A DNA stretch of 60,592 nt, taken from Planctomycetia bacterium. GTDB taxonomy: Bacteria; Planctomycetota; Planctomycetia; Gemmatales; Gemmataceae. A model generated the notes under the pieces. That model did not search any database and was not told the DNA's origin. It saw nothing but the letters and a program-made list of their open reading frames with translations. Made by a program: the position numbers and the translations under genes. The stretch lies in contig SYHD01000114.1 in assembly GCA_005799265.1 (NCBI GenBank), forward strand, positions 1 to 60,592, given 5' to 3'. Positions 31,611-60,592 of the stretch are shown here, one piece after another (within the stretch, counting starts at the first letter, position 1; each line of letters opens with the position of its first letter).

Positions 31611-31624
31611 GACGATTGGCGTGG

Positions 31625-43133: not shown

Positions 43134-45908
43134 CTAGGAACTCGCGGAGACGTTGGTGATCATCTTTCCAGCCAACGTCGGATGCGGATAAATCGCCATG
43201 GGAGCCAGGCTTGGGTCAAGCTCCACGCCACGTTCGAGTGGCTCGGGAGATCTGGCTGGTCGAAGATGATGCAGCGCCGACTCGGAGATCAACACCGGGC
43301 AGCGCTCAAATAGCTCCTTCTTATCAACGGCGCGGCAAAGGGCGACGACATGCTTGCCCATCAGCGCCGGCGCCCCAGCAAAGATGCCATGAACGACGCT
43401 CCCAAAATGGACGAACGTTCGACATCCCTCGATGACGATACTGGCTCGGTCCCTCAGGAGCGTTGCGATCTTGCCTTGGCACAAAGTCTGATCCGTTACG
43501 CCAAGCACCTCAAAGGCGCAGTCGCACGCTTTTTTTACCAATTCTTCCGAAGTCGCTTCCCGAGACCAGAAGGAAGCAAACAGGCCGTCGCCCGTGAACT
43601 TGTCGACGGTGCCGCCGTGTTTTTCGATCACGGCCTTGATTCGTGCGGCGTACTCCTGGAAAATCTGGGAGCTTTCGTCATTGTCCAGGAAACCGACCAT
43701 GCGCGTCGAACCACGCAAATCCGTCAATAGGAGCGCGGCATTGCGGTGTTCGAGGCCTGCCGTTTTCTCAGGCGGCAAGACGCGGGTTTTGAGCTCATCG
43801 GTCAGACGGATGTTCTTCTGTTCAATGTTCTCGACCTGTACCGCGAGACGGTCATTCTTCTGCCGCAGGTCCTCGAGATCCTCTTCCCGCTCGAGCAGGC
43901 GGCAGAGCAAGGTGTTGCGGTGATCAAAGAAATGCTCGGTCATGGCGGAACTCGGGTCCGTGATGGCGCGGGCATTGTGATAGATTTCGTGGAGAACATC
44001 CGCCATCATCCCGCTCAGGGGGAGTCCGCGGACGCAGTTGTCGCGAATTTTTTGGACGACTTTGTTATTGGCATTCAGCGTGAGCGCCATGAACTCACGC
44101 CCCTCCTTGGCGGCCTTGGCGGCCTCGTCCATGGCCTTGCGCAGCTTGGGGTCAAGTTCCGCGCCGCCCTGCTTGATCCACGTCTCGACCATGTTCGCCT
44201 GCTCTGGGCTGCGCGACGCGGTCAGGGTCATCAGGGCCGGCACGTAGGGAGGATCGAATTTCGATACCGTGACCTCGTCCGGCCCCGCGCCGTCGAGGCT
44301 CTTGAGGAATTGTTTCATCCGTTCATAAGGTGTCTCGTCGAACTCTTCGGTCTCGCCCAGGAAAATATGCTTGATCTTGCGAACATCCACAACCGAGCAC
44401 TCGTCGCCGAACACCTGGCCATAGCACTCGAGCAGAAGAGCTTCTCCCTCTTTCGTCGCCAGGATCACGGGGATGTCCTTCTGGACGATCAGAGCCCGCC
44501 ACTGGCTCATCGCGCCCTGGTCACCAAAATAGTAGATCTGCGGCTTCTCAGCCTTACTCTTCAGGGCGGCGGATTCGGCGATGTACTCGGGCAGGGTCAT
44601 GAACTGGCCGGCTGGCCGGCTGCGGTCGAAGACGGTGAAGGGGATGTACTTGATGATCGTGCGAAAGAACTCGGTCCCTTCCTGTTGGGGCGAGTGCTTG
44701 ATGTCTTCCAGTAGGGCCTTGTACAAGCGAGTCTGGTGGGCCGAGATGACCCTGTGAAAATCCTGACGCCGCTTCTCGGCCAGGAATTTCAGCACATCGA
44801 CGACCTGGCGAGACAGACCTTTCTTCAGCTCCGCAAACGCCGCGTCATGCCGGATCACATCATTTCGGTTCAGAGTGGGGGTCAAGTCCGGGCATTCGAC
44901 GAGCACGCCCACGAAAATGGCCCATTCCGGCAGCAGCGCCTTCATCTCGCTGGAGATGAACATGCGCCGCGAGAACAGATCGACCCGTGAAACCGATTCG
45001 AACGACTTTTGCAGCTCTTGGGGCGGCGTTGGGAAGTAGATGATCCCATGGGCGTCCACTCCGTCCTGCGCGTGGTGAAGCCGAAAGGGCTCGGCCCAGA
45101 ACGGATCGTTTTCCCCTTCATGTCGCTTCGTCAAGAACTCGATCACCTGAGGCGAATGACCGGAATTGTCCTCCCAGGGACCGCGCATAGTATTGGTCAA
45201 GGCGGGATTGCGATCATCGGGAGTGCGGTAGACGTAGATTGGAAAGGGGAGTAGATCGCCGAAGCGGCGCACTTCTTCCTGAAGACGCTGAAAGGTCAAG
45301 AGATCTCTGAGTGATTTCGTTTTTCCCGTCACCGGGTCAATGATATCGTCCTTCTTGAGAAATAACTTGACCCGGGTGCCAGGCGACTTGATGTCGCGCA
45401 CGTCCGCGTCGTCGAAGTACCATTTTGTTCCACCTGTAAACACTGCGCGCACACCCCGAGCGCTGGGTTCGGTAGCGCTTTTCGTGAGAACCTCGACACG
45501 GTCCGCAATGATGAAGGCAGAAAGAAACCCAATCCCGTACTGGCCGATCAGCTGCGTAAGTTCCCCCCGCGCTTCCGGATTCTCTTTTTTCAGGCGCTCG
45601 ATTTGTTCCCTCTTACCACTGTAGCCAACCGTGGCCAAGTATTGTTCAACGTGCGGTAGCGTCATGCCGATGCCGTTGTCGCCAAACGTCAGCGTTCCTG
45701 CCGAGGGATCTGGAATAATCTCGACCCGGTAGGCCTCCCCTCGAGGAAGGGACTTCCGCCCCACGAGTGCGTCATGACAATTCTGCAGTAGTTCTCGGAT
45801 TGAGATCCGCCAATCGTCTCCGTAGAGGTTCTTGGCCAGTGCAGGGAGAATGTTCTCCAGGCTGATGGAAATGTCCTTGCTTTTCATGCCCGAAGTGTCG
45901 CTTGACAT
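43134..45908 (-). CDS. Hsp90-like ATPase fused to class III nucleotide cyclase
   Basis: 924 residues. The N-terminal GHKL/Hsp90 domain has its N-box at E39-N43-D46, DNGIGM at 77-82 and GIGF at 125-128, followed by Hsp90 middle-like sequence. A coiled coil (about 671-708) and LPPEKTAGLEH lead into a class III cyclase homology domain (722-924): LLLTDLRGST with metal Asp730, DKFTGDG with Lys770 and Asp774, and GKHVVALCR with Arg859. The position of the catalytic Asn is Val855. Two metal Asps and Arg are kept, so activity is plausible but not certain. It would make a cyclic nucleotide in response to the chaperone domain. It is transcribed with the second Hsp90 gene (16-bp gap). Confidence 0.88.
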   Translation of the reverse strand: MSSDTSGMKSKDISISLENILPALAKNLYGDDWRISIRELLQNCHDALVGRKSLPRGEAYRVEIIPDPSAGTLTFGDNGIGMTLPHVEQYLATVGYSGKREQIERLKKENPEARGELTQLIGQYGIGFLSAFIIADRVEVLTKSATEPSARGVRAVFTGGTKWYFDDADVRDIKSPGTRVKLFLKKDDIIDPVTGKTKSLRDLLTFQRLQEEVRRFGDLLPFPIYVYRTPDDRNPALTNTMRGPWEDNSGHSPQVIEFLTKRHEGENDPFWAEPFRLHHAQDGVDAHGIIYFPTPPQELQKSFESVSRVDLFSRRMFISSEMKALLPEWAIFVGVLVECPDLTPTLNRNDVIRHDAAFAELKKGLSRQVVDVLKFLAEKRRQDFHRVISAHQTRLYKALLEDIKHSPQQEGTEFFRTIIKYIPFTVFDRSRPAGQFMTLPEYIAESAALKSKAEKPQIYYFGDQGAMSQWRALIVQKDIPVILATKEGEALLLECYGQVFGDECSVVDVRKIKHIFLGETEEFDETPYERMKQFLKSLDGAGPDEVTVSKFDPPYVPALMTLTASRSPEQANMVETWIKQGGAELDPKLRKAMDEAAKAAKEGREFMALTLNANNKVVQKIRDNCVRGLPLSGMMADVLHEIYHNARAITDPSSAMTEHFFDHRNTLLCRLLEREEDLEDLRQKNDRLAVQVENIEQKNIRLTDELKTRVLPPEKTAGLEHRNAALLLTDLRGSTRMVGFLDNDESSQIFQEYAARIKAVIEKHGGTVDKFTGDGLFASFWSREATSEELVKKACDCAFEVLGVTDQTLCQGKIATLLRDRASIVIEGCRTFVHFGSVVHGIFAGAPALMGKHVVALCRAVDKKELFERCPVLISESALHHLRPARSPEPLERGVELDPSLAPMAIYPHPTLAGKMITNVSASS

Positions 45909-45924
45909 GTTTGCCTCGATGGTT

Positions 45925-47811
45925 TCATTGCGCTATCTGGCGCAGCAGGGCGGCGATTAGGGCCGTGTGATTCTGGGAAATCTCCGCTAACTTTCTTGGC
46001 AAGAGCGGCAGTCCGGAGGACAACAGGGCCTGGTCGTAAAGAAACTTCGCGATGAGCGGACGAAGGGCAGCCGTTTCAGGCTTGGCCCGAGCCGATCCGT
46101 TGCGCCAACGCGCGTGTTCGTCTTGCAGTCGACCGAGCAGTTGCTGGACGATGTCGTTGGAATGATTGAGCAGGAGCGACTGGCCGGTCAGTTCTTCGAG
46201 AGCGTCCAGACCGCCTCCTTCGACGATGCGCCGCATTTCGTCGGACAACTCATGCAGCAATCCCTCGCGCTCGTATCGGCGCAGCGCGGCCGCGGCTGTG
46301 ACGTGTCGCCGGGTTTCATCGGGGAGTGTCAGAACCGCCGGGGGACCGCCGTCCCCCAGGGGCCGCACCTCGATGAAGATCTTTGGGTCCACCGCCAAAC
46401 GGAACACTTGCTGCACCATTTCAAGAATCGTGGGCTCCAGCGCCTTCTCGCCAACTTTCGCGCGCTGATCAGCCGATGCGGTTCGCTCGCCCGGCGGCGC
46501 CACGTCCACCCGACGGAACGTGATCGTCCGGGGGCCAATCTGCCAGTCCTTCCGCAGTTCGCGGTCCACGGCGTCCGTCATGTAGAGCACTTCCGTGTTG
46601 ACCCGCTGATATACCGGCAGCAAAGGAGCAGCCTGGCCGAGATCGTCCGCGTAAATGACAACGGGATCCGCAGCCGTTGCCAGATATTCAAACACGGTGA
46701 CGCGCTCGCGCACGGAAGAACGGAACGAAAAATGTTCCCGGAGCCGGGCGAGCATCGTCGGATGCTGGAGGCACGCCTGCTTGATGGCGGGACCGTGGCT
46801 GGCCATGATCCTGCGGAAATCCTGACGCCGCCGCACCGCCAGCTCCGCCAGCGATTCCGACAGAAAGTCGACCAGCACGGTGCGAATGCGCCGAATTTGC
46901 GCCGAGTGGGTTACGACGGCGTCGCGACTGATAACCAGAGGCAGTTGTTCGATGTCGATGACACCGCCGAGAAACGGCCGCAGCTCCTCGCCCAGGATGG
47001 CCTCGTCGCGCGCGGTGATCAGGACGCGCCTCGAGAAAAGGTGCACAGAAGGGCTCTCCTGCGCGTCGGACAGATACAGGACGCCCTGGATACGGCTGCC
47101 AGGACCTGCCTCCAACTGAAGCGGCAATAGGACGAGCGGGTCGCGCAGGCCGAATGCCTTGGACAAAACGGCGCGGATCTGCTCTTCCGGCGCCTCCTTG
47201 TGATACCACGGCGCGTCCATATCATTGAGTAGGTCGTCGTTCAAGAATATGGGGAAGCGGACGTAGTTGCAATAACGGCGCACGATCTCCTTCAGGGTTG
47301 CCGCTTCCGTGAGGCGCTTGTGATCGCGCAGCAGATGCAGCGTGACGGTGGTACCGGGATTCTCGACCGGATACGATCCGACGTCCATCTCGGCGCCGCC
47401 TGCGTAGACCAGGCGCGTCCCCGGATCGTCGACGTTGCGCGACCGTGTCAAGACTTCAACACTGCGGCATAAGGGCAGGCAGGAGTAGAAGCCGATGCCA
47501 AACTTGCCGATCGCATCAACTTGGTTTTCTTTCCCTGAGTAGAACAAGCGGCCCAGGTAGCCCTTGGCTTCGTCGGTGGTCATCCCGATGCCGGTGTCGA
47601 TAATGCGCAGGACGCGTGCATCGTCTCCACCTTTGAGGATGGGGGCAAGTCGGATTTGGCCCCCGCGCCGTTGTTCGATGGGCAGTGCGGCCAATCCGTC
47701 GGCGGCATTCGCCACGAGTTCACGGATGGTCGCCTCGGGACCGGCGAAAACGGAGCCGCCAAGGATCTCGAGGGCCTTGCGAACGTCAACGTCGATCCGG
47801 ACTTTTTTCAC
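45925..47811 (-). CDS. Second Hsp90-like ATPase
   Basis: 628 residues, GTG start at 47811. N-box E31-N35-D38, DTGIGM at 72-77 and GIGFYS at 105-110, then Hsp90 middle-domain-like sequence; no cyclase domain. It heads the leftward operon, opposite the GAP1 operon across a 155-bp divergent region. It may form a heterodimer with the cyclase-linked Hsp90 (inference). Confidence 0.88.
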   Translation of the reverse strand: MKKVRIDVDVRKALEILGGSVFAGPEATIRELVANAADGLAALPIEQRRGGQIRLAPILKGGDDARVLRIIDTGIGMTTDEAKGYLGRLFYSGKENQVDAIGKFGIGFYSCLPLCRSVEVLTRSRNVDDPGTRLVYAGGAEMDVGSYPVENPGTTVTLHLLRDHKRLTEAATLKEIVRRYCNYVRFPIFLNDDLLNDMDAPWYHKEAPEEQIRAVLSKAFGLRDPLVLLPLQLEAGPGSRIQGVLYLSDAQESPSVHLFSRRVLITARDEAILGEELRPFLGGVIDIEQLPLVISRDAVVTHSAQIRRIRTVLVDFLSESLAELAVRRRQDFRRIMASHGPAIKQACLQHPTMLARLREHFSFRSSVRERVTVFEYLATAADPVVIYADDLGQAAPLLPVYQRVNTEVLYMTDAVDRELRKDWQIGPRTITFRRVDVAPPGERTASADQRAKVGEKALEPTILEMVQQVFRLAVDPKIFIEVRPLGDGGPPAVLTLPDETRRHVTAAAALRRYEREGLLHELSDEMRRIVEGGGLDALEELTGQSLLLNHSNDIVQQLLGRLQDEHARWRNGSARAKPETAALRPLIAKFLYDQALLSSGLPLLPRKLAEISQNHTALIAALLRQIAQ

Positions 47812-47916
47812 AGAACTCTCGATGTGTTCGCAGGCAAGGCCCCCCTCCGAGCGCCCGGTGCTTCGTGGCGAATCGCGGTTTGGTTCCCTGTTCTTGCGAC
47901 ATTTCCTGTTAAGTTC

Positions 47917-47945
47917 TTCCCATCAGGCACGCCGGCCAGTATTAT
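47917..47945 (+). promoter_or_regulatory. Putative promoter of the GAP1 operon
   Basis: TTCCCA (47917-47922), 17-bp spacer, TATTAT (47940-47945), then GGAG and the ATG at 47967. It lies in the 155-bp region shared with the leftward Hsp90 operon. Confidence 0.45.
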
Positions 47946-47966
47946 AGCGGGTTAGAGAACGGAGTC

Positions 47967-49808
47967 ATGGCAATCCCAGCGCTGATTACCGATGGGACGC
48001 CACGTGGGGTGTATCCTAGCCTAGATCAAATCAATCCTTGGTCGTGGCACATCAGCCAAAACCCGATAGTGAATCATCGGATGGGAAAGGAACAGGCCGT
48101 GAACACGATCCCAGCCGGACAGTTTGTCTACTCCCGAGTTGATCGAGATCGATCACCCAATCGTCGCGATGGGTTTCAGACAATCTTTTACACCCGCGAC
48201 CGCTTGACAAAGAAGGAAATCGAAGAGATCGAGCCGCGCGTGCTCTACTATGCTGGCGACGGCCAGCCTCTTAAGCGGGTCTTTTTCTTGACTTCAACTG
48301 GCAAGGCCGTAATCGCACAGATGGTCCCCCTGGCAGAGACCGATAGCGCGGGGCGAGGCGGACTTTACCTGGCCCACGGTCTGGTGTTTGAAGGAAATGA
48401 TTTCGAGTCCATTGGAGCACACCCATTTGGCGTGTTTAAGCGTTTCCCATTCATTTCTTCGTTAAATGACGCCTTTGCCCAAGGGGATCTCAAGACTGGA
48501 AACATTCCAGACGCCAATTATTCTGCCTGCCCTGAAGAGGATCGGGAGCATGAATTGAACCTGGCCGTGAAATGGCCGGCCAAGGAACTGAAAAAACTGG
48601 CAATGGCAGCGCTGGCGGCAGAGTACTTGGCGGAGAAACGCTCCGCGGTGTACTTTGTGGGCCCAGTCTCGAAGATTGAGGAGGGGCTGGCTGCCGCCCT
48701 GTTCGCCGTTCCGACACGTCAGCGCTTTCGCTGTAGCTTCGCCGCTCACTTTTACAAGTGCAATCTGAACTCCACGTTCTTTTGGGGCGTGGGGCAGGAC
48801 AAGCCTCCTGCCAATCCACATTACCTCGTCGTGGACGTTGTGAAGAAGATACTTGACGGGGATTGTCCGGAAATGGATACGTGCTACGGCCGGTGGTTGA
48901 GCCGGACCATCGAATCGGAGTCATTTGTCGACCTCGTTGAGCATAAGGACCGTGCCGAGGCTCTCGGTAACATGCTCGATGGCAAGGAGCACAACGAGCG
49001 CCTGGCGCGCGAAGCCCCGGAGAAGATTGTCGCGACGATGTGCGAGGCCAATCCGAGGCCCTATCAACAGCACGTCTTTCAGACGCTCGCCCGCGTCTTG
49101 CACAGCAGGTTTCTTGCCAAGCGCCTGCTTGCATCCGTAATCTCAGACGAGAAGCTTCGGTTCTCCACACTTTGGGGTGTCTCATTCGCTGATCTGGTGA
49201 AAATGTTGTTTTACTCCTTTCGCAAAAACGATTACCGCGTTCCAGAGGAGGAGTGGCCCGAATTCCAAGCCGTCGTAGACAGAGCGCGGGACGAGGCGAA
49301 CAACCATGAAGTGGTGGGCCTGGAGTTGATCTTGGCTTGTAAGAAGAAAAACGTTGCTGACGTGAGAAGTCGAATCAGCCGTCTGAGCAAGGAGTGGTAT
49401 ATCGATTTCGTCACCCGCAGTGTGGCCTCTAGGTTTATCGAACCGGCCGCCTTGCTATTGCCCGGTCGCAGCGAGATGTTCTTCGCCGGCGTGGAGAAGT
49501 CAGAGGGGGCGCTCCAGGATGAAGACATTTTGGCGGTTATTCAGACCCTCGTCGCGAATGGTGACACGAATCGATTGGACCAAGTCGTCCCATATCTGAA
49601 CGGCGTTTCCAAGAACACGCTCAAATCAATCGAACAGTACATTCGGGCGCAGATGCAAGTATTGTCAACCTTCTGTGAGCATCTCCGTACACAAAAGGCT
49701 ATCGAACAGTTCATTCGGATGCAGGTGGAAATGTTGGCGACCTTTTGTCAGCAGGTAAGAGAACCAAGAGAGGCAATCAAGCGACAGGATGCTATTCGGA
49801 ACGCGTAG
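47967..49808 (+). CDS. GAP1-like (GTPase-associated) protein
   Basis: 613 residues. The N-terminus (GQFVYSRVDRDRSP, RRDGFQTIFYTRDRLTKKEI, GLYLAHGLVF) has the pattern of GAP1-N2-type domains, which accompany conflict-system GTPases (from memory). The C-terminus carries a helical tandem repeat (IEQYIRAQMQVLSTFCEHL, then IEQFIRMQVEMLATFCQQV) in the last 60 residues, likely an adaptor or self-association module. First gene of the conflict operon, followed by the radical-SAM activase gene (21-bp gap). Role as partner and signal adaptor of the GTPase is inferred. Confidence 0.72.
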   Translation: MAIPALITDGTPRGVYPSLDQINPWSWHISQNPIVNHRMGKEQAVNTIPAGQFVYSRVDRDRSPNRRDGFQTIFYTRDRLTKKEIEEIEPRVLYYAGDGQPLKRVFFLTSTGKAVIAQMVPLAETDSAGRGGLYLAHGLVFEGNDFESIGAHPFGVFKRFPFISSLNDAFAQGDLKTGNIPDANYSACPEEDREHELNLAVKWPAKELKKLAMAALAAEYLAEKRSAVYFVGPVSKIEEGLAAALFAVPTRQRFRCSFAAHFYKCNLNSTFFWGVGQDKPPANPHYLVVDVVKKILDGDCPEMDTCYGRWLSRTIESESFVDLVEHKDRAEALGNMLDGKEHNERLAREAPEKIVATMCEANPRPYQQHVFQTLARVLHSRFLAKRLLASVISDEKLRFSTLWGVSFADLVKMLFYSFRKNDYRVPEEEWPEFQAVVDRARDEANNHEVVGLELILACKKKNVADVRSRISRLSKEWYIDFVTRSVASRFIEPAALLLPGRSEMFFAGVEKSEGALQDEDILAVIQTLVANGDTNRLDQVVPYLNGVSKNTLKSIEQYIRAQMQVLSTFCEHLRTQKAIEQFIRMQVEMLATFCQQVREPREAIKRQDAIRNA

Positions 49809-49829
49809 CAATCGCCGGTTGAACCAAAG

Positions 49830-50441
49830 ATGACCCACAGCGAAGTCACGATTAATGTTCACGACATCCAGTTGCGGAGCGCCGTCAACGGCCCAGGAGA
49901 ACGGTTCGTTCTATGGCTACAAGGATGCCCACTTGCGTGTCCCGGTTGTTTTAACCCAGATACCCATTCCTTTCAGCCGCGGCGAGTTTTTTCGATTCAC
50001 GAATTATCGAACCAGATTCTTCAGACGGCTGGCATTGAAGGTGTGACCTACAGCGGAGGTGAGCCGATGTCTCAAGCAGGGCCGCTCTCACTGCTGACGG
50101 AGCGATTGCGCGAGGCCGGTTTGACGGTGGTTTGCTACTCGGGCTACACGTTGGAGTCGCTGCGCGCCCGGATGGATCCGTCGATCGATCGTATGCTCGC
50201 GGGGATTGACGTTTTGATTGACGGGCCCTTCCTACAAGAGCGTGCCGGACCCTTCCAGTGGCGCGGCAGCAGTAACCAACGGATCCATTTTCTCACGGAC
50301 GCCTATACCCACTTGCGAACGCAGGTTGGTGACGGTCAGTTCCAAGTTGAATTCACGATTCGCGAAGACGGCTTTGACGTCACAGGGATTTGGCCGGAAG
50401 GCTTTGTCGACCGGCTCACCAAGACTCTGAACAGGAGCTAG
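49830..50441 (+). CDS. 4Fe-4S radical-SAM activating-enzyme-like protein
   Basis: 203 residues. CPLACPGC (Cys33, Cys37, Cys40; CxxxCxxC) binds the [4Fe-4S] cluster, and GGEP at 76-79 binds SAM. Size and layout resemble glycyl-radical activases (NrdG/PflA), but no glycyl-radical enzyme is seen nearby, so the target may be a protein of this locus. It precedes the GTPase gene by 4 bases. Confidence 0.85.
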   Translation: MTHSEVTINVHDIQLRSAVNGPGERFVLWLQGCPLACPGCFNPDTHSFQPRRVFSIHELSNQILQTAGIEGVTYSGGEPMSQAGPLSLLTERLREAGLTVVCYSGYTLESLRARMDPSIDRMLAGIDVLIDGPFLQERAGPFQWRGSSNQRIHFLTDAYTHLRTQVGDGQFQVEFTIREDGFDVTGIWPEGFVDRLTKTLNRS

Positions 50442-50445
50442 CCCG

Positions 50446-51468: not shown

Positions 51469-51501
51469 AAGCCATAGATTCTGAAAACACGGCAGACCGA
51501 A

Positions 51502-52887
51502 ATGAGTTGGGAAAAAACGTTGCTGGCCGAATGGCGGAATAACGATGATGAGGAGTACAGTGACTGGCTGTTCAATACTGTCGGTGACCGGACTTCGGTT
51601 ATCCCGTTTGCGATGACCGGCGTACTTTTGGGCGTGATTTATGGTCTAGTAGTCGCATATGCCCTTACCATTGTGTGGCACGCTTGGGCGGGAAGCATAG
51701 GCTTCTTTCTTGTATGCGGAATATCGGGCCTCGCGCCATTTGCTGTGCCGAAAAGCTGGCTGAGTTGGCGCAGATGGTTACAGTGGTTGAGTCCGGAACC
51801 GAGAGTTTTCGATGCGAAGAACTCCGGCGTATGGCAGTGGCTTTTTCTTTCCGTTATCTGCTGCGTACCGGCTCAACCGATCGTACTGTTTCTTGTAGGC
51901 CGGATCCTTGGTCCGGTCATCGTGACGCTGCCAGCAGTCCTAGCTATCGCCGCTGGCGTGACTCTTTACCGCCTGAGTCCTACAGACCTCGGGTTGGATC
52001 CGGTTTTCAGAAATTGCCTTGTGGCGATTCTTATCATCGGTGGATCTGCAGCCGGTTTCGGATCACTACTGCCAGGCCAGAGGCTAAGAAACGCTTGGCG
52101 CTATCGGTGGCTGTGGTTCTGGTGGGCTAACCGGCCGGCGCCGTTGGAGGTCGAACGGGCATTGAGGGATTCGCGTGATGGTGAAGCCAAAGTACTTCTC
52201 GAACGCTTGGAACAGACGAAGCTGGGTTATCGCTTCCCTATGGACGCGACTGTGGCATCTCCTCAGAAACTCGTAGAGGAATTGGAAGCCTACAATTGGA
52301 AGGAGCGGTTCGCCGCCCGTCACACTCTCCTCAATCTTGGCGGTGAGGCCGTGGATTTGCTGATTAGCAAGAAAGGGGCAACGAGCCTTTGGCTGCTCAT
52401 TTGGATTGCCGATGAGACGGCTAACCGACTTGCTGACGCCACTCGGTTTGTTTGCAAACGCTGCCTGTGCCGATGCGCACCTCATGTTGTGGAGCACGAT
52501 GGTGGACAAACACTTGTCTACCACGGCTGCATCAGGTGCAAGCAAAGTCGGGAGTTTTATGAATGTCCAGGAAAGGTAATTGCCTGCGTGGGTAGCGCGC
52601 CATCGAATGAGATCGTATGCGAGAACGGACACTTATACGTTAACTGTAGCTTGAGGGGTGACGCCGGGGAGTTTGATGAGGTAACCATTGCCGACGCTAC
52701 CGACCAAGACGTAGAAGCCTTCGTCATCCGCGCTGAGATTTTTTTTGCGTCCGGAATGTCAGGTCGACCTTCTAGGACGTGCCTGATCGCCCTTACTTGT
52801 AAGCTCTTGCCAAACACCGTGAACATGTTGAGGTCTCGAATCGGAAAAGTCAAGTTCGTTCCGCTGCAAAAGGGAGCAAAACCATGA
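51502..52887 (+). CDS. Multi-pass membrane protein with C-terminal zinc cluster
   Basis: 461 residues. About five to six membrane segments in the first 200 residues (LLGVIYGLVVAYALTIVW, LFLSVICCVPAQPIVLFLV, VAILIIGGSAAGFGSLL). The cytoplasmic half has a helical part and a Cys cluster (CKRCLCRC, CIRCK, YECPG). Probably anchors or senses at the membrane for the GTPase/ClpB complex (inference). Overlaps the coiled-coil gene (ATGA). Confidence 0.7.
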   Translation: MSWEKTLLAEWRNNDDEEYSDWLFNTVGDRTSVIPFAMTGVLLGVIYGLVVAYALTIVWHAWAGSIGFFLVCGISGLAPFAVPKSWLSWRRWLQWLSPEPRVFDAKNSGVWQWLFLSVICCVPAQPIVLFLVGRILGPVIVTLPAVLAIAAGVTLYRLSPTDLGLDPVFRNCLVAILIIGGSAAGFGSLLPGQRLRNAWRYRWLWFWWANRPAPLEVERALRDSRDGEAKVLLERLEQTKLGYRFPMDATVASPQKLVEELEAYNWKERFAARHTLLNLGGEAVDLLISKKGATSLWLLIWIADETANRLADATRFVCKRCLCRCAPHVVEHDGGQTLVYHGCIRCKQSREFYECPGKVIACVGSAPSNEIVCENGHLYVNCSLRGDAGEFDEVTIADATDQDVEAFVIRAEIFFASGMSGRPSRTCLIALTCKLLPNTVNMLRSRIGKVKFVPLQKGAKP

Positions 52888-53825
52888 GTGGCCGCAAGAA
52901 GTCTGACTTTGAACTGCGGCGCGAACGCGCAGAGAAACTCAATCTTTTGCAGCGCGTGATGGGCTTATGCAATCAGGCCGTGGGCCTTCGTCAAGACATT
53001 AACGAGCGGGTTGCCGCCGTCTCGGAAGGCCTGCGCACGACGTTCGCGCGGGAAATTGCTCGTGCCTCGAGCTGGGCCAAACAAACCGCCCCCGAAAGCG
53101 CATCGCTGAGCATGGACAGCGATACCGCGGCGCTGCAACAGACGCAGCAGCGCCTGGAGCAGTTCGCCAAGGAAGGCCTCGCGGCGCAGCAGCAACTGCA
53201 GTTGACGCTCACCCAGAAGGCGGATCAATTCGGCCAGCGCCTCACGACTCGGTTGGCAGAGGCGCGGGGGGAATACCTGGCCCGGCGTGAATTGATCGGC
53301 CAGTGGTTTCCCGAGATCCGTCAGCGGACGGATGAGCAATTCCGTCAAGCGGAAAAGATGCTCCAGGAGGAACACTATTCCAAGCTGGATCCCCTGCTGG
53401 GCAACCTCCATGGCGCTATTACGAAGGCTGGAAGCGAATCCGAAAGTCTGGAGAGCCAACACCAGAAACGGATGTATCTGCTCAAAGCGCTCCGGCAGGT
53501 ATGTCAGGACATGGGCATGAAAGAAGTCTCGACGCCGCAGTTCGAATCAAGCAGCCAACGCGGCAGTAAAATCAATTTGCAGGTGGACACGATCAATCAC
53601 GGCCATATCAAGTTCAGCCTGGCGCTGGACGGCATCAGCAGCTTTGCCGGCACGGAGCAACAGACGCACTGTTTCCATGACTTCGGCCGTCTTTCGCGCC
53701 ATCTGGAAGAGCAGTTCGGCATCCAGACCAAATTCCGCACCGAAGCCGGCGAGGAGATTCCAGAGGACCGGGCCCGCAACGAACTCGACCTGCCCGAGGA
53801 CACCGGGTTGGAAGCAACCGACTGA
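52884..53825 (+). CDS. Long coiled-coil protein
   Basis: 313 residues. About 30-220 are heptad-like and Gln/Glu/Ala-rich (QQTQQRLEQFAKEGLAAQQQ). A globular C-terminus (GHIKFSLALDGISSFAGTEQ) follows. It could be a scaffold between the membrane protein and the ClpB-like ATPase. Ends 32 bp before the ClpB gene. Confidence 0.7.
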   Translation: MSGRKKSDFELRRERAEKLNLLQRVMGLCNQAVGLRQDINERVAAVSEGLRTTFAREIARASSWAKQTAPESASLSMDSDTAALQQTQQRLEQFAKEGLAAQQQLQLTLTQKADQFGQRLTTRLAEARGEYLARRELIGQWFPEIRQRTDEQFRQAEKMLQEEHYSKLDPLLGNLHGAITKAGSESESLESQHQKRMYLLKALRQVCQDMGMKEVSTPQFESSSQRGSKINLQVDTINHGHIKFSLALDGISSFAGTEQQTHCFHDFGRLSRHLEEQFGIQTKFRTEAGEEIPEDRARNELDLPEDTGLEATD

Positions 53826-53857
53826 CCCGGAATCCATTCACTCATTCGAGGCCCGTC

Positions 53858-55738
53858 ATGTCCGCCAAGATCAATCCGTGCCTGTGGCTCCGCAACCTCA
53901 AAACAACACTGGAAACGCGGCCGGTGGTGATTCTCCACGGCAACGTGAGAGACCGCTACATCGATGAGAGCGGTCGGGTGTTCGAGAATCTGACCGGTCT
54001 CCTCGTGGAGCTGTCCCGAAGCTTGCCGGGCAGTTTCAGCGAGACCATTTTTTACGATCACGTCGCCGGTGAACGAAAAACGACGCTTCATGGCAATACC
54101 AAGGTTGCCCCGCAGGCGACGGGCAATGCGGAACTGGATGCCACGCGCGCGGAGCGTCGCACAGGCGAGCGCGTTCCTCCGGAGCGCGTGTTTGCCACCT
54201 GGGTCGGGCAGCTGCGCGCGCGCGATCAGAACCGCTTCGTGGTCGCGTACTACCTGGACAAGCTCGTCGCCTACAAAAAGAATGGTTATCAGGACAATGA
54301 AAAAGAGGTCCTTCTCTGGTTGGAGAAGGCGGTCGAGAACATCACGGAAAACCACCGCTTGATCCTCGTGGCGCTCGAGGACACGATGATTCCTCTCGAA
54401 CTATACACAAATTCCCCAAAGACGGCGGTTGTGCCAGTGCCGCTGCCCAATCAATCCGATCGCCGCCGCTATCTGGAACATCGCCTGGCAGAACGAGGAA
54501 ATCGCTCCGGCGCACGAGCGCAACTCGACAACTTCAAGCTGATCTGTGACCTGACGGACGGGCTGTTTCTGCGCGACCTGGACCGCATCGCGCAGCCGCT
54601 CGCGGGCCGCCTCCACGAGCTCAGCAGTCGCGAAGTCTCACAAATCGTCAACAAATACCGTATAGGAGAACAGGAGGACTACTGGGGACAGTTAAGCGTC
54701 GCCGCCCTGGATGGCGCCACGGACTGGTTCACCGAACGCGTGAAAGGACAGAATGATGCGATTCGCAAGCTGACGGACACTCTTTGCGTCGCGCGCGCGG
54801 GGCTCTCCGGCATGGCCAGCGGTACCCCGTCCAAACCGAAAGGCGTCTTGTTCTTTGCCGGACCAACCGGCGTAGGTAAGACGCTGCTTGCCAAGAAACT
54901 GGCGGAATTCCTGTTCGGCACCGAGGAAGCTTTCCTGCGATTTGACATGAGCGAATTCAAGGAGGAGCACACCGTCTCCAAACTGATTGGCTCGCCGCCG
55001 GGCTACGTCGGCTTCGAACGTGGCGGTCTGCTCACCAACCGCGTTCGCGAACGGCCTTTTTCCGTCATCTTGTTCGACGAAATCGAAAAGGCGCATCCCA
55101 AGATCATGGACATCTATCTGCAGATCCTCGACGACGGGCGCCTTACCGACAGCCGCGGCCAAACGGTTTTCTTCACCGAAACATTGATTATCTTCACCAC
55201 CAACCTGGGCACACGCTCCAAGGATAGCCAGGATCGCGAGCTTCACGAAAAGGCGGCGCTCGAGAGCATCGTCAACAACGCCGAGCTGCCTGACGAAGTT
55301 AAGAAACAGAAGGTCCAGCAGCACTTCAAAGACACCGTGACCAGGTTCTTCACGACCGAAATCTCGCGACCCGAATTGATGAACCGCATTGGCAACAATA
55401 TCGTTCCGTTCAACTACATTGACAGCGCCGAAGTGCAGCGGGAGATTATCCAGACGCATCTGCAACGCATGACGGTTGACTACGCAGACAAGTATCGAAC
55501 GGCGCGGCATCAACTTGTTTTCGATGACAACGTCGTCGAATGGATCCTGACGCAAAGATCGGAAGGATTCAAGACGTTTGGAGCACGCGGCATCACCAAT
55601 GCGCTGGCGGAGGATGTCAGTCCCCTGCTTGCCCGCGCCACGCTTCGGGCTGAGGAACGCGGCTACGAAGGCGCCGTGTTTCGCTGCGTGCTGAACGAAG
55701 AGGGCTCGGTGTCAAAGCTGGAGATACGCGAAGTATGA
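53858..55738 (+). CDS. ClpB-like AAA+ ATPase with degenerate first domain
   Basis: 626 residues. Residues 1-290 look like a divergent AAA domain without Walker A. The second is canonical ClpA/B D2: GPTGVGKT (335-342), pore loop GYVG (382-385), Walker B ILFDEIEKAHP (404-414), a TTN sensor 1 and FGARGI sensor 2. It probably remodels or threads a substrate within the ternary complex. Coupled to the next gene (ATGA). Confidence 0.9.
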   Translation: MSAKINPCLWLRNLKTTLETRPVVILHGNVRDRYIDESGRVFENLTGLLVELSRSLPGSFSETIFYDHVAGERKTTLHGNTKVAPQATGNAELDATRAERRTGERVPPERVFATWVGQLRARDQNRFVVAYYLDKLVAYKKNGYQDNEKEVLLWLEKAVENITENHRLILVALEDTMIPLELYTNSPKTAVVPVPLPNQSDRRRYLEHRLAERGNRSGARAQLDNFKLICDLTDGLFLRDLDRIAQPLAGRLHELSSREVSQIVNKYRIGEQEDYWGQLSVAALDGATDWFTERVKGQNDAIRKLTDTLCVARAGLSGMASGTPSKPKGVLFFAGPTGVGKTLLAKKLAEFLFGTEEAFLRFDMSEFKEEHTVSKLIGSPPGYVGFERGGLLTNRVRERPFSVILFDEIEKAHPKIMDIYLQILDDGRLTDSRGQTVFFTETLIIFTTNLGTRSKDSQDRELHEKAALESIVNNAELPDEVKKQKVQQHFKDTVTRFFTTEISRPELMNRIGNNIVPFNYIDSAEVQREIIQTHLQRMTVDYADKYRTARHQLVFDDNVVEWILTQRSEGFKTFGARGITNALAEDVSPLLARATLRAEERGYEGAVFRCVLNEEGSVSKLEIREV

Positions 55739-56862
55739 AAAGCTCCCCCCCTGCCACTCTGAACTCTGGGTGCTTTTCGACCGGCGCCGGAACCGGCGCG
55801 AAGGTGGCCATCGTCCTGGACGCCGCACGCACGCCTGCACCGGAGCGCAACCGTGTGATCGGTCTGATCGACGAAGTGCTGTCACGCCTGCCGGCCATTT
55901 ATGATCGGGAGATCTACTTCCTCGGCAATCCGCAGCCATACCTCGCGCGGCGCTTTAACCACGAGGCTCAGAAATGGTTCGAGATGAATTCCAGCCGTGT
56001 CAGCCTAGTGACGCCCGTGCTGGAGACGATTTGCCGTGGTTCTCCGCTTGTCGTGATCGTAGGTGCGGGACATGTTTTTGATTTGGCTGACTGGCTGAAT
56101 CAGCCAGTGGCTCGGCAAATGATCCTTGCCACCGTCGCCGAGCCGCTGGGCGATGTTGGCACGACCCTGAGCGTCCTGAAACAGCCCACTGCGGATCGCC
56201 TGCTCGAACAGATTCACGATCCGGTGCAAGCCGTCGAGATATCCGGGCCTGACTTCATGCCGTTCTTTTGGGATAATCTGGCATACAAAGTTGAGGCCGA
56301 TTCGCACGCTCACGGTTTTCGGCTGAACGTTCAAAAGGCAGAGCATTACGACGTGTGTTTTGAGTGCTTGTACACGGGCAAGTCGGCGCCGGCAGTTCGA
56401 TCCACCCACGCAAGTGGACGCGAAACCGTCCCGGCGCTCGAGGTCATGGCCCCGGCTTCCATCGAACGACCGCCCATTCATCGTATGAGCAAGGAGGAGG
56501 AAGTTGTCTTTCGTCGAGCCGTTGACAAGAAGTCATTTCGTTGCCTGCACTGCCAACACGATCACTGCTGGCACGAAGTTCGTTGCCTGTCCGGCGGAAG
56601 CATTCTTGGAAAACTGGTGTATCCATCGATGGAGCGCGAGCGGCTTTCCGGATTTGTTCTCTGCGCTCTCAAGCAGGAGGGAGCCGAATATCAATTGCAC
56701 CCGGTGCAAGTGCTAAGACTTTCCCAGGACGAGGTTGCGATCAGGCAGAAGCAAAAAGCAGTCATTTATCGGTTTGTCGCCGGACGCGGCTGGGTTTCCA
56801 CCGCCGAGGCGTTCGAGCCCTATTCTTCGCTTGGCGGGGGGGCGTATGCGCTGCTCGTTTAA
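55735..56862 (+). CDS. vWA-like protein with zinc-binding segment
   Basis: 375 residues. The start VAIVLDAARTPAPERNRVIGL (seen in parts) resembles a vWA MIDAS-type strand with modified residues, followed by REIYFLGN and LVVIVGAGHVFDL strands. Later cysteines/histidines (RCLHCQHDHCWH) could bind zinc. vWA proteins accompany AAA+ ATPases in ternary conflict systems. Overlaps the FGE-like gene. Confidence 0.65.
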   Translation: MKSSPPATLNSGCFSTGAGTGAKVAIVLDAARTPAPERNRVIGLIDEVLSRLPAIYDREIYFLGNPQPYLARRFNHEAQKWFEMNSSRVSLVTPVLETICRGSPLVVIVGAGHVFDLADWLNQPVARQMILATVAEPLGDVGTTLSVLKQPTADRLLEQIHDPVQAVEISGPDFMPFFWDNLAYKVEADSHAHGFRLNVQKAEHYDVCFECLYTGKSAPAVRSTHASGRETVPALEVMAPASIERPPIHRMSKEEEVVFRRAVDKKSFRCLHCQHDHCWHEVRCLSGGSILGKLVYPSMERERLSGFVLCALKQEGAEYQLHPVQVLRLSQDEVAIRQKQKAVIYRFVAGRGWVSTAEAFEPYSSLGGGAYALLV

Positions 56863-57472
56863 TGTTGACCGCACAGGCTTTCCCCTCCTTCACGTCCCGG
56901 CAGCGGGCCTGTACGTACACCTGTTGCCCGTGACCAAGATTCAATTTGAGCGTTTTCTGGCTGAGCCCAATGAATTCGATAATCGCTGGTATGAGGAGGT
57001 CCTGGCCGCCAATCCTCGTTATTGTCAGTCGCGCGCGGTCGATGAGAAACGGGAGCGGCTCTTTCTGACAAACGTGCTGCCGGAGGAAGCGCGCCAGTTT
57101 GCCGACTGGCTGGGAGATGGGTTTGGCCTTCCGACGGTGAGCCAGTGGCGGGCCGTCTACCGCGCCCTGGCGCGAATCGATTACACGGACAAACTGCTCG
57201 ACCTGGTCGCCCTGGCCCCGGCGGCGCGGGCGATTCTGGTGCAGCTAGTCAAGGAGTTGAAGCCGACCTCCCTCCTGTCGTTGTCTCTGATGGTTGAGGG
57301 CGTGGTCGAGTGGGTCATGGATGGAACCGCCTGGGTGGGAGTCGGGGCTCCGCGCGCATCGCTCCACCCAGTTATTTCGGACCCAACCAGGGACACGCAC
57401 AAGCCGATCGATCCCTCGCGCCGCTTGCATTTCTTCGGTTTCCGGCTAGTGTGCAACCAGGCACAATCGTGA
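56846..57472 (+). CDS. FGE-sulfatase (C-type-lectin-fold) domain protein
   Basis: 208 residues from ATG 56846. HLLPVTKIQFERFL, LPTVSQWRAVYRAL, GVVEWVMDG and FFGFRLVC match the FGE-sulfatase superfamily pattern (Pvt-x-x-x-F, RLPTEAEWE, GNVWEW, GFR). The catalytic cysteines of true FGE were not located. Such domains occur in conflict systems as binding modules. Confidence 0.8.
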   Translation: MRCSFNVDRTGFPLLHVPAAGLYVHLLPVTKIQFERFLAEPNEFDNRWYEEVLAANPRYCQSRAVDEKRERLFLTNVLPEEARQFADWLGDGFGLPTVSQWRAVYRALARIDYTDKLLDLVALAPAARAILVQLVKELKPTSLLSLSLMVEGVVEWVMDGTAWVGVGAPRASLHPVISDPTRDTHKPIDPSRRLHFFGFRLVCNQAQS

Positions 57473-57494
57473 GAGGGGCGATTCCGCTTTGGTC

Positions 57495-58697
57495 ATGAGC
57501 AAGCGCAGATTTCTCATACTGATCCCCGTGTCGGTCTATGTGGATCGCAACGTGCCGGCGCTGCCGGGTGTGCGGCGCGACGCTGAACGTCTGCGGTCCG
57601 TGTTACAAACACACGCCGACGGTGGCGTGCATCGGGTCGATTGGCTCCCCGACGGCAAGGCCCGCAAACGCGCGATCGTCCGCACCCTGCGCAAGGTTGC
57701 CCAGGAGGCGGGCGTAAGTGACCAGGTCGTCATTTACTTCGGTGGGCATGGCTGGCGCGAACGAGACCGGGCAGGGACCGATTGGAAGTATTACTTGCTG
57801 ACGTCCGAAGCATCTTTTTCCTCTGCGTGCGACGGCCTTTCACTGGCCAACCTCGGCGACCTCTTGAACGGTTTTCACGCCGGCGAGTTGGTGGTTATCC
57901 TGGATTGTTGTTTTAGCGGCGGAATGGCCAACTTCTTGTGGACTCCGAACAATTTGGATGAGGCGCTAGAGGGATGGAAGAACCACTATGTGATGGCAGC
58001 CTCGCGCGGCCGTGAGCAAGCGGGCGAGGATGACGACGGTGGGTTCTTCGTGCAGGCCCTGTGCGACTGTCTGGAGGGAAATGGTGTTGCTCCAGACGCA
58101 CAGGGGCGCATCTCAGCGCAGGCCGCATGGGCCAGCGCGGCAGCCGCTACAACCAAACGAGCAGACCGTCGTGGGCACAGCCAGAGCCCCGTAAGCTCAA
58201 GTCCTCCGACCGCGCTCATCTATCTGACTCGAATTGACAGCGGTCCATCTGTCGCGGCGGCGAAAGGACAGCTGAAAGATAGGTTTCGGGAAAGGGCCAC
58301 CCTCATTAAGGCGCTTCGATTGCAGGCAATTGTGCGCGGCGACAAGCAACTCGCAAATGAAATCGCGTCTGTCGCTGAGGTGCAAGCGATACAGCCCGGT
58401 GAGAACCTGATCAGTCAGGGAGCCTCAGACAATGACGTGTACTTCATATTGGCTGGCCGGCTTGCGATTGTGGTCGATGGACAAAAAGTCGCCGAAAGAA
58501 CTGCTGGCCAACAGGTTGGCGAAATGGCACTTATTGATCCTGCCGCGAAAAGGTCGGCAACGGTCACAGCAATTGAAGAGACGGTTTTGGCCAAGGTAAC
58601 GGAACCGGCATTTGCTAAACTAGCCGACGGCAACGCCGACCTGTGGCGGGACCTGGCCATCGAACTAACTAGGCGTGTTGCGACAGGAAAGAGATAA
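57495..58697 (+). CDS. Caspase-like protease with C-terminal cNMP-binding domain
   Basis: 400 residues from ATG 57495. The caspase fold carries the His/Cys dyad: VIYFGGHG with His85 and DCCFSGG with Cys139 (DCCFSG, cf. DSCHSG of metacaspases). The last 108 residues (293-400) are a cyclic-nucleotide-binding domain: IQPGENLISQG, DNDVYFILAGRLAI and an intact phosphate-binding cassette VGEMALIDPAAKRSATV with Glu343 and Arg353. A linker of about 40 residues joins them. It should be a protease switched on by a cyclic nucleotide. Last gene of the operon. Confidence 0.93.
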   Translation: MSKRRFLILIPVSVYVDRNVPALPGVRRDAERLRSVLQTHADGGVHRVDWLPDGKARKRAIVRTLRKVAQEAGVSDQVVIYFGGHGWRERDRAGTDWKYYLLTSEASFSSACDGLSLANLGDLLNGFHAGELVVILDCCFSGGMANFLWTPNNLDEALEGWKNHYVMAASRGREQAGEDDDGGFFVQALCDCLEGNGVAPDAQGRISAQAAWASAAAATTKRADRRGHSQSPVSSSPPTALIYLTRIDSGPSVAAAKGQLKDRFRERATLIKALRLQAIVRGDKQLANEIASVAEVQAIQPGENLISQGASDNDVYFILAGRLAIVVDGQKVAERTAGQQVGEMALIDPAAKRSATVTAIEETVLAKVTEPAFAKLADGNADLWRDLAIELTRRVATGKR

Positions 58698-59840: not shown

Positions 59841-60323
59841 ATGAAACTCAGGATCGAGAAGGAAGTTGCTGCGCTTCAGCAGATGCCAACGGGGCAACTC
59901 TGCGAGCGCTACGCCGAGCTATTCGGCGAACCGACGCGGACGCGGAACCGGACGTACCTGGTCCGCAAGATCGCATGGAAGCTTCAAGCCCTGGCCGAGG
60001 GTGACCTTAGCGACCGGGCACGGCGGCGAGCCGAGGAACTGGCTCGCGGCGAGGAACTGCGAGTCATGCCGCCGAAGTCCACCGAGGCGGCGCATCCGGC
60101 GGCGGTGGTGATGCACGAAGTCATTTCGACCGATCCGCGTCTGCCCTCGCCCGGCACGGCGATTGTTCGCGAGTACAAGGGCCAGAAACTGCAGGTGCTG
60201 GTGCTAGCGGACGGCTTTGAGTTCGAGGGCGAGCGCTACAAGTCGCTCTCGGCCGTCGCCAAGAAGATCACGGGCTCGCACGTCAACGGCTATCGCTTCT
60301 TCGGGTTGGAGGGCAAGCAATGA
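59841..60323 (+). CDS. DUF2924 protein
   Basis: 160 residues. [40 protein letters not shown] and [20 protein letters not shown] are the DUF2924 signature. It overlaps the recombinase start (ATGA), the usual DUF2924-recombinase coupling. Role in recombination unknown. Confidence 0.9.
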
Positions 60324-60592
60324 AGCGCACAACCGTCACCAAGCCGGCGGCGGCGAATGTCCGCTGCGCCATTTACACGCGCAAGTCCACGGAAGAGGGG
60401 CTGGAGTTGGAATTCAACTCACTCGACGCCCAACGCGAATCGGGCGAGGCTTACATCGCCAGCCAGAAGCAAGAGGGCTGGTCGTGCCTTGCCGACCGCT
60501 ACGACGATGGCGGCTTCACCGGCGGGAACATGGAGCGTCCTGCCCTGAAGCGACTGATGATGGACATCGAGGCGGGCAAGGTCGATTGCGTC
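60320..60592 (+). CDS. Large serine recombinase, N-terminal part (3' end outside window)
   Basis: The first 91 codons, ending at the window edge. [10 protein letters not shown] with the catalytic Ser in the resolvase N-domain, [27 protein letters not shown]. By family length about 60 residues are missing before the C-terminal part at 1-1116. Confidence 0.92.

What the first reader, a model, noticed from the sequence alone, without database searches (positions are those of the whole stretch)
43134..58697. Cyclic-nucleotide circuit in a conflict locus: Hsp90-cyclase plus cNMP-gated caspase
One locus encodes both a class III nucleotide cyclase domain (fused to an Hsp90-like ATPase, residues 722-924) and a caspase-like protease with a cNMP-binding domain that keeps the phosphate-binding Glu343 and Arg353. 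The other genes (GAP1-like, GTPase, ClpB-like, vWA-like, FGE-like) are sensor and signalling families known from bacterial conflict systems. The simplest reading is a CBASS/Pycsar-like logic with different parts: a chaperone and GTPase complex senses infection, the cyclase makes a cyclic nucleotide, and the caspase is activated to damage the cell or cleave a local partner. I do not know a described system with this exact combination.
Basis: partly seen in the sequence, partly recalled or inferred. Interest (0 to 1): 0.93.

Follow-up and report, generated by a model that had tools for sequence, protein, structure and literature searches.

The report
Hsp90-cyclase and nucleotide-gated caspase locus
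A bacterial gene cluster beside a prophage pairs a chaperone fused to a likely nucleotide-making enzyme with a caspase that carries the signal-sensing domain of a known phage-defence system, which suggests an immune alarm built from an unusual set of parts.

Summary
In one planctomycete contig, 43134-58697 holds two divergent operons: two Hsp90-like genes, one ending in a class III cyclase domain, and nine genes (GAP1-N2, DO-GTPase, ClpB-like AAA+, FGE-like and others) ending in caspase-CNBD. Key new result: the caspase's CNBD is of the PycTIR (Pycsar) family (PADLOC 2.9e-48; PDB 8jsk 2.6e-30). Seven of eight named ligand or oligomerisation residues are kept; the uracil-specifying Asn is Lys. 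Of 17 other PycTIR-type loci examined, 16 have a class III cyclase nearby; the only cyclase found in this window is the one on Hsp90. Prophage genes lie left of the locus, a serine recombinase right.

A Pycsar-like circuit with new parts is the best reading, not proven. The cyclase keeps both metal Asps, the Lys and the Arg but has Val for the transition-state Asn. The Hsp90 pair occurs in two other genomes without a detectable caspase-CNBD or GAP1. No second caspase-PycCNBD fusion was found. The GAP1 match is marginal; the vWA label was not confirmed. New variant of a known kind; confidence 0.55, interest 0.75.

The parts
43134..45908 (-). P0001: Hsp90-like N and middle domains (about residues 1-640), helical linker, C-terminal class III cyclase domain
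   Evidence: Pfam HSP90 44.1 bits; NCBIfam HtpG 209 bits, below its 371 cut-off; E39, N43, D77, G79, G81 and R348 invariant in an alignment of 8 Hsp90-like proteins (ATP-site roles recalled)
43137..43742 (-). class III nucleotide cyclase domain of P0001 (residues 723-924); D730, D774, K770, R859 kept, V855 where the catalytic Asn is expected
   Evidence: PADLOC PycC 3e-11; profile to PDB 1wc1 6.9e-14 and 7r65 1.6e-9; alignments
45925..47811 (-). P0002: second Hsp90-like protein without cyclase, first gene of the minus-strand pair
   Evidence: Pfam HSP90 64.3 bits; Desulfocapsa homologue 45% over residues 193-628, in the same order
47812..47966 (.). 155-bp divergent intergenic region between the two operons
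   Evidence: gene coordinates; sequence; promoter-like matches near it on both strands, weak evidence: 8 in the region against 4.4 (sd 2.3) in shuffles
47967..49808 (+). P0003: GAP1-like protein (GAP1-N2)
   Evidence: PF20013 25.0 bits, cut-off 24
49830..50441 (+). P0004: NrdG-like radical SAM activase
   Evidence: PF13353 114.3 bits; TIGR02491 NrdG 115 bits, cut-off 126.1
50446..51468 (+). P0005: DO-GTPase type 2
   Evidence: PF19993 45.3 bits, cut-off 27
51502..52887 (+). P0006: probable membrane protein, unassigned
   Evidence: no Pfam or NCBIfam match; hydrophobic stretches read by eye only
52884..53825 (+). P0007: coiled-coil-like protein, unassigned
   Evidence: only sub-threshold coiled-coil and GrpE-like matches
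53858..55738 (+). P0008: ClpB-like AAA+ ATPase
   Evidence: AAA_2 179.5 bits, ClpB_D2-small 22.4 against cut-off 21.9
55735..56862 (+). P0009: unassigned; vWA label not confirmed
   Evidence: no Pfam match over cut-off, no NCBIfam match at 0.01, no PDB match at E 1
56846..57472 (+). P0010: FGE/sulfatase-modifying-factor-like protein
   Evidence: PF03781 24.3 bits, cut-off 23.3
57495..58697 (+). P0011: caspase-like protease with C-terminal PycTIR-type cyclic-nucleotide-binding domain
   Evidence: Peptidase_C14 38.5 bits and cNMP_binding 51.0 bits; His in FGGHG and Cys in DCCFSG present (catalytic roles recalled)
58275..58679 (+). PycTIR-type CNBD of P0011 (residues 263-397)
   Evidence: PADLOC PycTIR 162.7 bits, 2.9e-48; PDB 8jsk 2.6e-30; residue map; tree
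59841..60592 (+). DUF2924 gene and serine recombinase (resolvase N-terminal domain), the latter cut by the contig end: mobile-element context
   Evidence: PF11149 156.2 bits; PF00239 38.8 bits

Best explanation
A prophage-borne or prophage-adjacent Pycsar-like defence circuit with swapped parts. Shown: a caspase carrying the PycTIR-type cyclic-mononucleotide sensor closes a GAP1/DO-GTPase/ClpB-like operon, and a divergent operon encodes an Hsp90-like pair, one member ending in the only class III cyclase domain found in the window. Inferred: infection, sensed through the GAP1-GTPase unit and/or a client of the Hsp90 clamp, changes the state of the Hsp90 dimer so that two cyclase domains meet and form an active site; the cyclic mononucleotide made binds the caspase CNBD, which dimerises and oligomerises as in PycTIR and brings caspase domains together; the protease then kills or arrests the cell or cleaves a partner in the locus. 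The nucleotide is probably not cUMP. P0002, an Hsp90 without cyclase, may hold P0001 in inactive mixed dimers (speculative).
For: The P0011 CNBD is PycTIR-type: PycTIR 162.7 bits over the CNBD alone against 51 for Pfam cNMP_binding, whereas the one generic CNBD control scores 62.8 against 71; best PDB match 8jsk PycTIR 2.6e-30, CRP 1.7e-4; G86, E87, A89, R97, S98, E114 and R138 of PsPycTIR kept; a split with support 91 sets it and 17 PycTIR-type CNBDs apart from two generic CNBDs and L059. Class III cyclase nearby in 9 of 9 plasmid loci examined (of 25 records with a match) and in 7 of 8 planctomycete loci. One cyclase found in the window. Cyclase assignment. Active-site residues kept. Tight operon, gaps of at most 33 bp or overlaps. 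Prophage and recombinase context. Caspase dyad present.
Against: Cyclase and caspase lie 11.6 kb apart on opposite strands, unlike ordinary Pycsar pairs. Val replaces the transition-state Asn in all three Hsp90-cyclases. The PycC model also rings in 5 of 14 control genomes, so it shows class III, not PycC. Hsp90-cyclase pairs in two other genomes come without a detectable caspase-CNBD, GAP1, P0005 or P0009. Uracil-specifying N143 is K401. No second caspase-PycCNBD fusion in 391 other phylum or 296 other class genomes, 72,556 plasmids or 50,697 phages. One PycTIR-type locus of 17 has no recognised cyclase. After PycTIR, protozoan cGMP kinases also match P0011 in the PDB (3.4e-15 summed over several domains). 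The tree does not resolve its place among PycTIRs (support 43). AF2 model of the cyclase is poor (pLDDT 46.7). No functional data.
Confidence: 0.55

Rival explanations
1. Two independent modules share an island: the Hsp90 pair is one system, and the GAP1-caspase operon another whose caspase answers a cyclic nucleotide made elsewhere (for example by the canonical cyclase on contig C186) or by the phage.
For: Hsp90 pair found without detectable GAP1 or caspase-CNBD in two genomes; a canonical Guanylate_cyc protein exists on C186 (80.7 bits); opposite strands.
Against: PycTIR-type sensors have a nearby cyclase in 16 of 17 other loci examined, and here the only one found nearby is P0001's; the PycC model finds two cyclases in the 6.47-Mb MAG, so one within 15 kb by chance has an expectation of about 0.01 if that count is complete (no full class III census was run; the MAG is 87% complete); the operons share a 155-bp divergent region.
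Confidence: 0.2
2. The cyclase domain is catalytically dead and works as a nucleotide sensor, scaffold or decoy; Kaur et al. note inactive cyclase domains among variable effectors of related systems.
For: Transition-state Asn is Val in all three homologues and the second base-specifying residue is Ala in two of three (alignment read by eye); inactive cyclase domains described in PMC7159879 (passages).
Against: Both metal Asps, the Lys and the Arg are invariant at 28-44% identity; all six PycC-like proteins aligned keep the Asn but have Lys for the Arg, so one change in this pair need not mean a dead enzyme (their activity was not tested either).
Confidence: 0.15
3. Inverted logic as in Panoptes: the cyclase makes its signal all the time, the nucleotide holds the caspase off, and phage anti-defence enzymes that remove the nucleotide release it.
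For: Panoptes is a precedent (passages of PMC12657218); phage Apyc1 degrades cyclic mononucleotides (passages of PMC9117128).
Against: The CNBD belongs to a family in which the nucleotide activates (PMC11224242 section 8), and the elaborate GAP1-GTPase-chaperone set is not needed for a constitutive cyclase.
Confidence: 0.07

Closest known systems
Pycsar (PycC + PycTIR / PycTM)
   Same: Effector with a PycTIR-type CNBD, including an N-terminal extension with the RF motif shared by most aligned PycTIR-type proteins and the ligand contacts; class III cyclase encoded nearby
   Different: Caspase instead of TIR or TM, and at the N-terminus; no uracil-specifying Asn; cyclase fused to an Hsp90, 11.6 kb away on the other strand; GAP1/GTPase/AAA+ genes in the effector operon
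GAP1-N2 DO-GTPase-centric conflict systems (Kaur et al. 2020, PMC7159879)
   Same: GAP1-N2 and DO-GTPase2, a probable membrane protein, chaperones, and an FGE-type protein (the paper reports FGS-domain effectors in some planctomycete systems; that FGS means FGE-type is my recall)
   Different: No FNIII protein recognised; Hsp90 and ClpB-like instead of HSP70/GrpE/DnaJ; the terms Hsp90, HtpG and GHKL have 0 occurrences in that paper's main text; none of 20 planctomycete stretches fetched around PF20013 matches has Hsp90, ClpB-like or caspase-CNBD homologues by tblastn, though P0003 itself did not find those GAP1s either
Cyclic-oligonucleotide-activated caspase-like proteases of type III CRISPR (SAVED-CHAT; recalled, only a paper listing seen)
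   Same: A nucleotide second messenger gates a caspase-fold protease
   Different: SAVED sensor and oligonucleotide from Cas10 there; CNBD and a class III cyclase here
EACC1 and VMAP systems with caspase or cNMP cyclase modules (PMC7159879, passages)
   Same: Caspases and cNMP cyclases as alternative parts; P0011's caspase is nearest to NCBIfam caspase_w_EACC1 (94.3 bits, below cut-off 140)
   Different: No EACC1, VMAP or MoxR component recognised here, and no confirmed vWA

Membership tests
Pycsar | Effector with PycTIR-family CNBD that keeps ribose/phosphate contacts | tested here: met
Pycsar | Cyclase of the PycC family | tested here: inconclusive
   PycC models match (3e-11) but also ring in 5 of 14 control genomes; best PDB profile match is CyaC, then PycC
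Pycsar | Cyclase and effector genes together in one small operon | tested here: not met
   11.6 kb apart, opposite strands; within a few kb in 16 of 17 other loci examined
Pycsar | TIR or transmembrane effector domain | tested here: not met
   Peptidase_C14 instead
Pycsar | Uracil-specifying Asn (PsPycTIR N143) in cUMP receptors | tested here: not met
   K401 at that position; Ser (L056) and Ala (L057) also occur in the same alignment
Pycsar | Synthesis of cUMP or cCMP on infection | not testable with these tools
   needs enzymology
GAP1-N2 DO-GTPase system | GAP1-N2 domain | tested here: met
   25.0 bits against cut-off 24, narrow
GAP1-N2 DO-GTPase system | DO-GTPase | tested here: met
   PF19993 45.3 bits against 27
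GAP1-N2 DO-GTPase system | FNIII-repeat protein | tested here: not met
   no fn3 match in the 11 locus proteins scanned; a very divergent one could be missed
CBASS | CD-NTase oligonucleotide cyclase | tested here: not met
   no such family among Pfam or PADLOC matches of the ten locus proteins scanned (P0010 had Pfam only)
Class III nucleotide cyclase | Two metal Asps, substrate Lys, transition-state Asn/Arg (roles recalled) | tested here: inconclusive
   D730, D774, K770, R859 kept; Asn is V855
Caspase (C14) protease | Domain match and His/Cys dyad | tested here: met
   38.5 bits against 21.4; FGGHG and DCCFSG
HtpG chaperone | NCBIfam HtpG over its cut-off | tested here: not met
   209.1 and 216.8 bits against 371: Hsp90-like, not HtpG

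The most novel reading that the evidence does not exclude
A chaperone-gated second messenger: the ATP-driven Hsp90 clamp is itself the infection switch, loading a phage-derived or misfolded client and closing so that two tethered cyclase domains form an active dimer, with the cyclase-free Hsp90 paralogue as a brake; the (probably non-uracil) cyclic nucleotide then turns on a caspase that replaced the TIR of a Pycsar effector. As far as I know it would be the first immune sensor in which an Hsp90 directly drives nucleotide signalling.
Probability: 0.3. Interest if true: 0.92.

Novelty: new variant of a known kind. Interest (0 to 1): 0.75.

Why it matters
It would join three immune themes usually described apart: Pycsar cyclic-mononucleotide signalling, GAP1-GTPase conflict systems, and caspases. 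How Pycsar cyclases notice a phage is, to my knowledge, open; a cyclase built onto an Hsp90 offers a concrete, testable sensor. A caspase in place of a TIR would also show that CNBD-gated immunity can run proteolytic death, a bacterial parallel to apoptosis.

Tried and rejected
Pfam Guanylate_cyc as proof of the cyclase: no Pfam match on the isolated window domain or on that of G013; the Desulfocapsa one has only DUF2652 below its cut-off (16.4 against 22.1). Replaced by profile search. PADLOC PycC as proof of Pycsar membership: rejected, since it rings in 5 of 14 control genomes. CBASS reading: rejected, no CD-NTase seen. AlphaFold model of the cyclase domain from three sequences: poor (pLDDT 46.7, pTM 0.51); 49 of the 50 Foldseek rows shown are class III cyclases but the best E is only 3e-3, so it counts as weak support. 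Viral contigs: two single-protein scans, no relatives. Phages: no P0011 match at 1e-6; for P0001 the 20 listed of 35 records match only up to residue 418. Plasmids: no GAP1 match. GAP1 neighbourhoods in planctomycetes as a source of sister loci: 22 of 294 genomes (the window's own included) have PF20013; 20 stretches fetched, none with the other parts, weak GTPase matches in 5; P0003 itself did not find the GAP1s there, so the test is insensitive for that gene. Direct repeats as prophage att sites: none convincing. vWA label for P0009: not confirmed. Rows dropped: L059 (G164, CNBD match with three stops in the frame) was left out of the 17; it showed no cyclase in its 1.5-kb flanks. L188 and L191 have no annotated cyclase and L190 no annotation; their cyclases were found by tblastn. 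L057/L192 has a PycTIR-type protein and no recognised cyclase: counted as the one miss. Of the planctomycete loci only L192, L193 and L194 were checked as PycTIR by PADLOC; L199-L203 rest on 39-48% identity to the P0011 CNBD and a 307-327-residue frame. In one search L133, L195 and L197 were on the script's list but gave no row, so only L134 and L135 served as generic CNBDs.


Full report
WHAT IS THERE. The window is contig C68 of a 6.47-Mb MAG (87% complete). The finding's interval holds two divergent operons separated by 155 bp. On the minus strand lie P0002, then P0001, both Hsp90-like. On the plus strand lie GAP1, a NrdG-like radical SAM protein, a DO-GTPase, a probable membrane protein, a coiled-coil-like protein, a ClpB-like AAA+, P0009, an FGE-like protein and caspase-CNBD, with gaps of at most 33 bp or short overlaps. 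GC is 52-62% in these genes and 60-64% in the five other window genes measured.

THE CYCLASE. Pfam misses it. A three-sequence profile (window, Desulfocapsa, G013) finds CyaC at 6.9e-14 and PycC at 1.6e-9 in the PDB, and PADLOC PycC models match residues 723-808. Because the PycC model also rings in 5 of 14 control genomes, I take this as 'class III cyclase', not 'PycC'. Invariant in the three are D730, D774, K770 and R859. The catalytic Asn position is Val in all three, and the second base-specifying position is Ala, Ala and Thr (read by eye; residue roles recalled). All six PycC-like plasmid proteins aligned keep the Asn but carry Lys for the Arg, so a change in this pair is not by itself proof of death. 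Activity is open.

THE CASPASE. Peptidase_C14 with His and Cys in place, then a CNBD. Over the CNBD alone PADLOC PycTIR scores 162.7 bits while Pfam cNMP_binding scores 51. The one generic CNBD scanned with both libraries, on a TPP enzyme, scores 62.8 against 71, so the excess is specific. The best PDB match is PycTIR 8jsk at 2.6e-30, then PycTIR 8jsj 5.6e-16 and, summed over several domains, protozoan cGMP kinases 3.4e-15; CRP is at 1.7e-4. With the offset of 258 from that alignment, PsPycTIR G86, E87, A89, R97, S98, E114 and R138 are kept; of six hydrophobic contacts four are identical and two are Ile-to-Val; N143, which reads uracil, is K401, one residue before the end (residue roles from PMC11224242, section 8 read whole, and passages). 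In a tree of 21 CNBDs a split with support 91 sets P0011 and 17 PycTIR-type domains apart from two generic CNBDs and L059; its position among the PycTIR-type domains is weakly supported (43). The simplest account is a Pycsar effector whose TIR was exchanged for a caspase.

GUILT BY ASSOCIATION. If the sensor is a Pycsar sensor, a cyclase should be near. On plasmids P0011 matches 25 records; all 20 listed rows match from residue 231 or later, that is the CNBD and at most some linker, and 13 of the 16 with an annotation are named TIR or PycTIR proteins. I fetched 9 of the 25: cyclase within 3.5 kb in 9 of 9, six by annotation and three by tblastn (loci). In planctomycetes, searches of 392 phylum and 297 class genomes gave eight PycTIR-type loci; 7 of 8 have a cyclase in the stretch held, one (G303) has none recognised. 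In the window, HMMs of three cyclase groups find one protein only, P0001. The genome has two PycC-model matches in all; on that count a cyclase within 15 kb either side by chance has an expectation of about 0.01, but a full class III census was not run.

CO-OCCURRENCE, TOLD BOTH WAYS. The genome-contig scan (two 8-residue patterns, so relatives with other residues there are missed) gave 67 loci. Only Desulfocapsa L063 (53% identity, residues 1-914, with a P0002 homologue at 45% just upstream) and OFTM341 L064 (30%, residues 8-867) align through the cyclase; the rest stop by residue 672, some because contigs end. Of 294 phylum genomes, 30 others match P0001 at 1e-30, one (G013, the same OFTM341) through the cyclase; none of 296 other class genomes matches at 1e-50. 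GAP1, P0005 and P0009 do not ring in Desulfocapsa or OFTM341 (the tool warns that such silence shows little), and for P0011 only separate caspase or CNBD matches do, none a fusion. The Desulfocapsa contig is 4.5 kb, so neighbours are unknown; for OFTM341 39 kb around the pair were fetched and show HerA/mads_8-like ATPases but no P0011 match by tblastn. So the Hsp90 pair is a separable module: this weakens, and does not exclude, the proposed wiring. No other caspase-PycCNBD fusion was found.

GAP1 CONTEXT. PF20013 is present in 22 of 294 planctomycete genomes including the window's; in 20 stretches fetched around such matches tblastn finds no Hsp90, ClpB-like or caspase-CNBD homologue, and weak GTPase matches in five; P0003 did not find those GAP1s, so this window's version is far from them. 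It has no match at 1e-5 in 391 other phylum genomes. Kaur et al. 2020 (sections 27 and 29 whole, part 1 of section 35, passages elsewhere) describe HSP70/GrpE as a theme in about 14% of GAP1-N2 loci; Hsp90, HtpG and GHKL have no occurrence in the main text. This locus thus looks like a further chaperone theme in a divergent branch.

MOBILE CONTEXT. Left of the locus are tailed-phage genes: primase (16362-18524), ParB/methyltransferase (19090-20433), terminase (22058-24373), portal (24871-26322), capsid (26282-28273), tape measure (31821-34148). Right of it are DUF2924 and a serine recombinase cut by the contig end. The locus may be prophage cargo; the boundary was not found.

HSP90 AS A PLATFORM. 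Among relatives met by the way, an Hsp90-like protein of G181 ends in a TIR domain (71.6 bits), and those of G238 and of two Herpetosiphon loci scanned (L066, L093) carry extra C-terminal stretches without a Pfam match over cut-off. Hsp90-like proteins with exchangeable signalling domains may therefore be a wider immune theme.

LITERATURE. Nine searches of the open library showed no paper describing an Hsp90-cyclase fusion or a caspase with a Pycsar CNBD in the titles and abstract openings listed; PMC3501461, on prokaryotic caspase architectures, has no occurrence of 'cyclic nucleotide', 'cNMP' or 'adenylate cyclase' in its main text (figures are not held). Tal et al. 2021 is not held, so the published list of Pycsar effectors was not checked.

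VERDICT. Observation confirmed. The Pycsar-like reading is well supported on the sensor side, plausible on the cyclase side and unproven as a circuit. New variant of a known kind.

Noticed in passing
window 14617-34148: Tailed-phage genes (helicase, primase, ParB/methyltransferase, terminase, portal, capsid-protease fusion, tape measure) left of the conflict locus; the locus may be prophage cargo.
   Followed up: partly
window 59841-60592: DUF2924 gene followed by a serine recombinase cut by the contig end; possible integrase of the prophage or of another element.
   Followed up: partly
L035:12989-15649 minus (G181): Hsp90-like protein with a C-terminal TIR domain (TIR_2 71.6 bits, HSP90 64.9 bits).
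   Followed up: partly
L037:10161-12758 plus (G238); L066, L074, L075, L093 (Herpetosiphon): Hsp90-like proteins longer than usual; in Herpetosiphon as tandem Hsp90 pairs (838 and 595 aa). G238, L066 and L093 were scanned and their C-terminal stretch has no Pfam match over cut-off.
   Followed up: partly
L186, L187, L188, L189 (plasmids): PycTIR-type loci with genes annotated as E2, E1-associated or Mov34/JAB-type between or beside cyclase and effector, suggesting a ubiquitin-like branch of Pycsar.
   Followed up: no
L192:6601-7530 minus (G303): PycTIR-type protein without a recognised cyclase nearby; the upstream 299-aa and 481-aa frames have no Pfam or PADLOC match at 0.001.
   Followed up: partly
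L197:4723-6789 plus (G013): Thiamine-pyrophosphate enzyme with a C-terminal cyclic-nucleotide-binding domain.
   Followed up: no
window 40038-41147 and 42311-42778: Papain-family protease and a DUF6941 protein between the phage tail region and the conflict locus.
   Followed up: no
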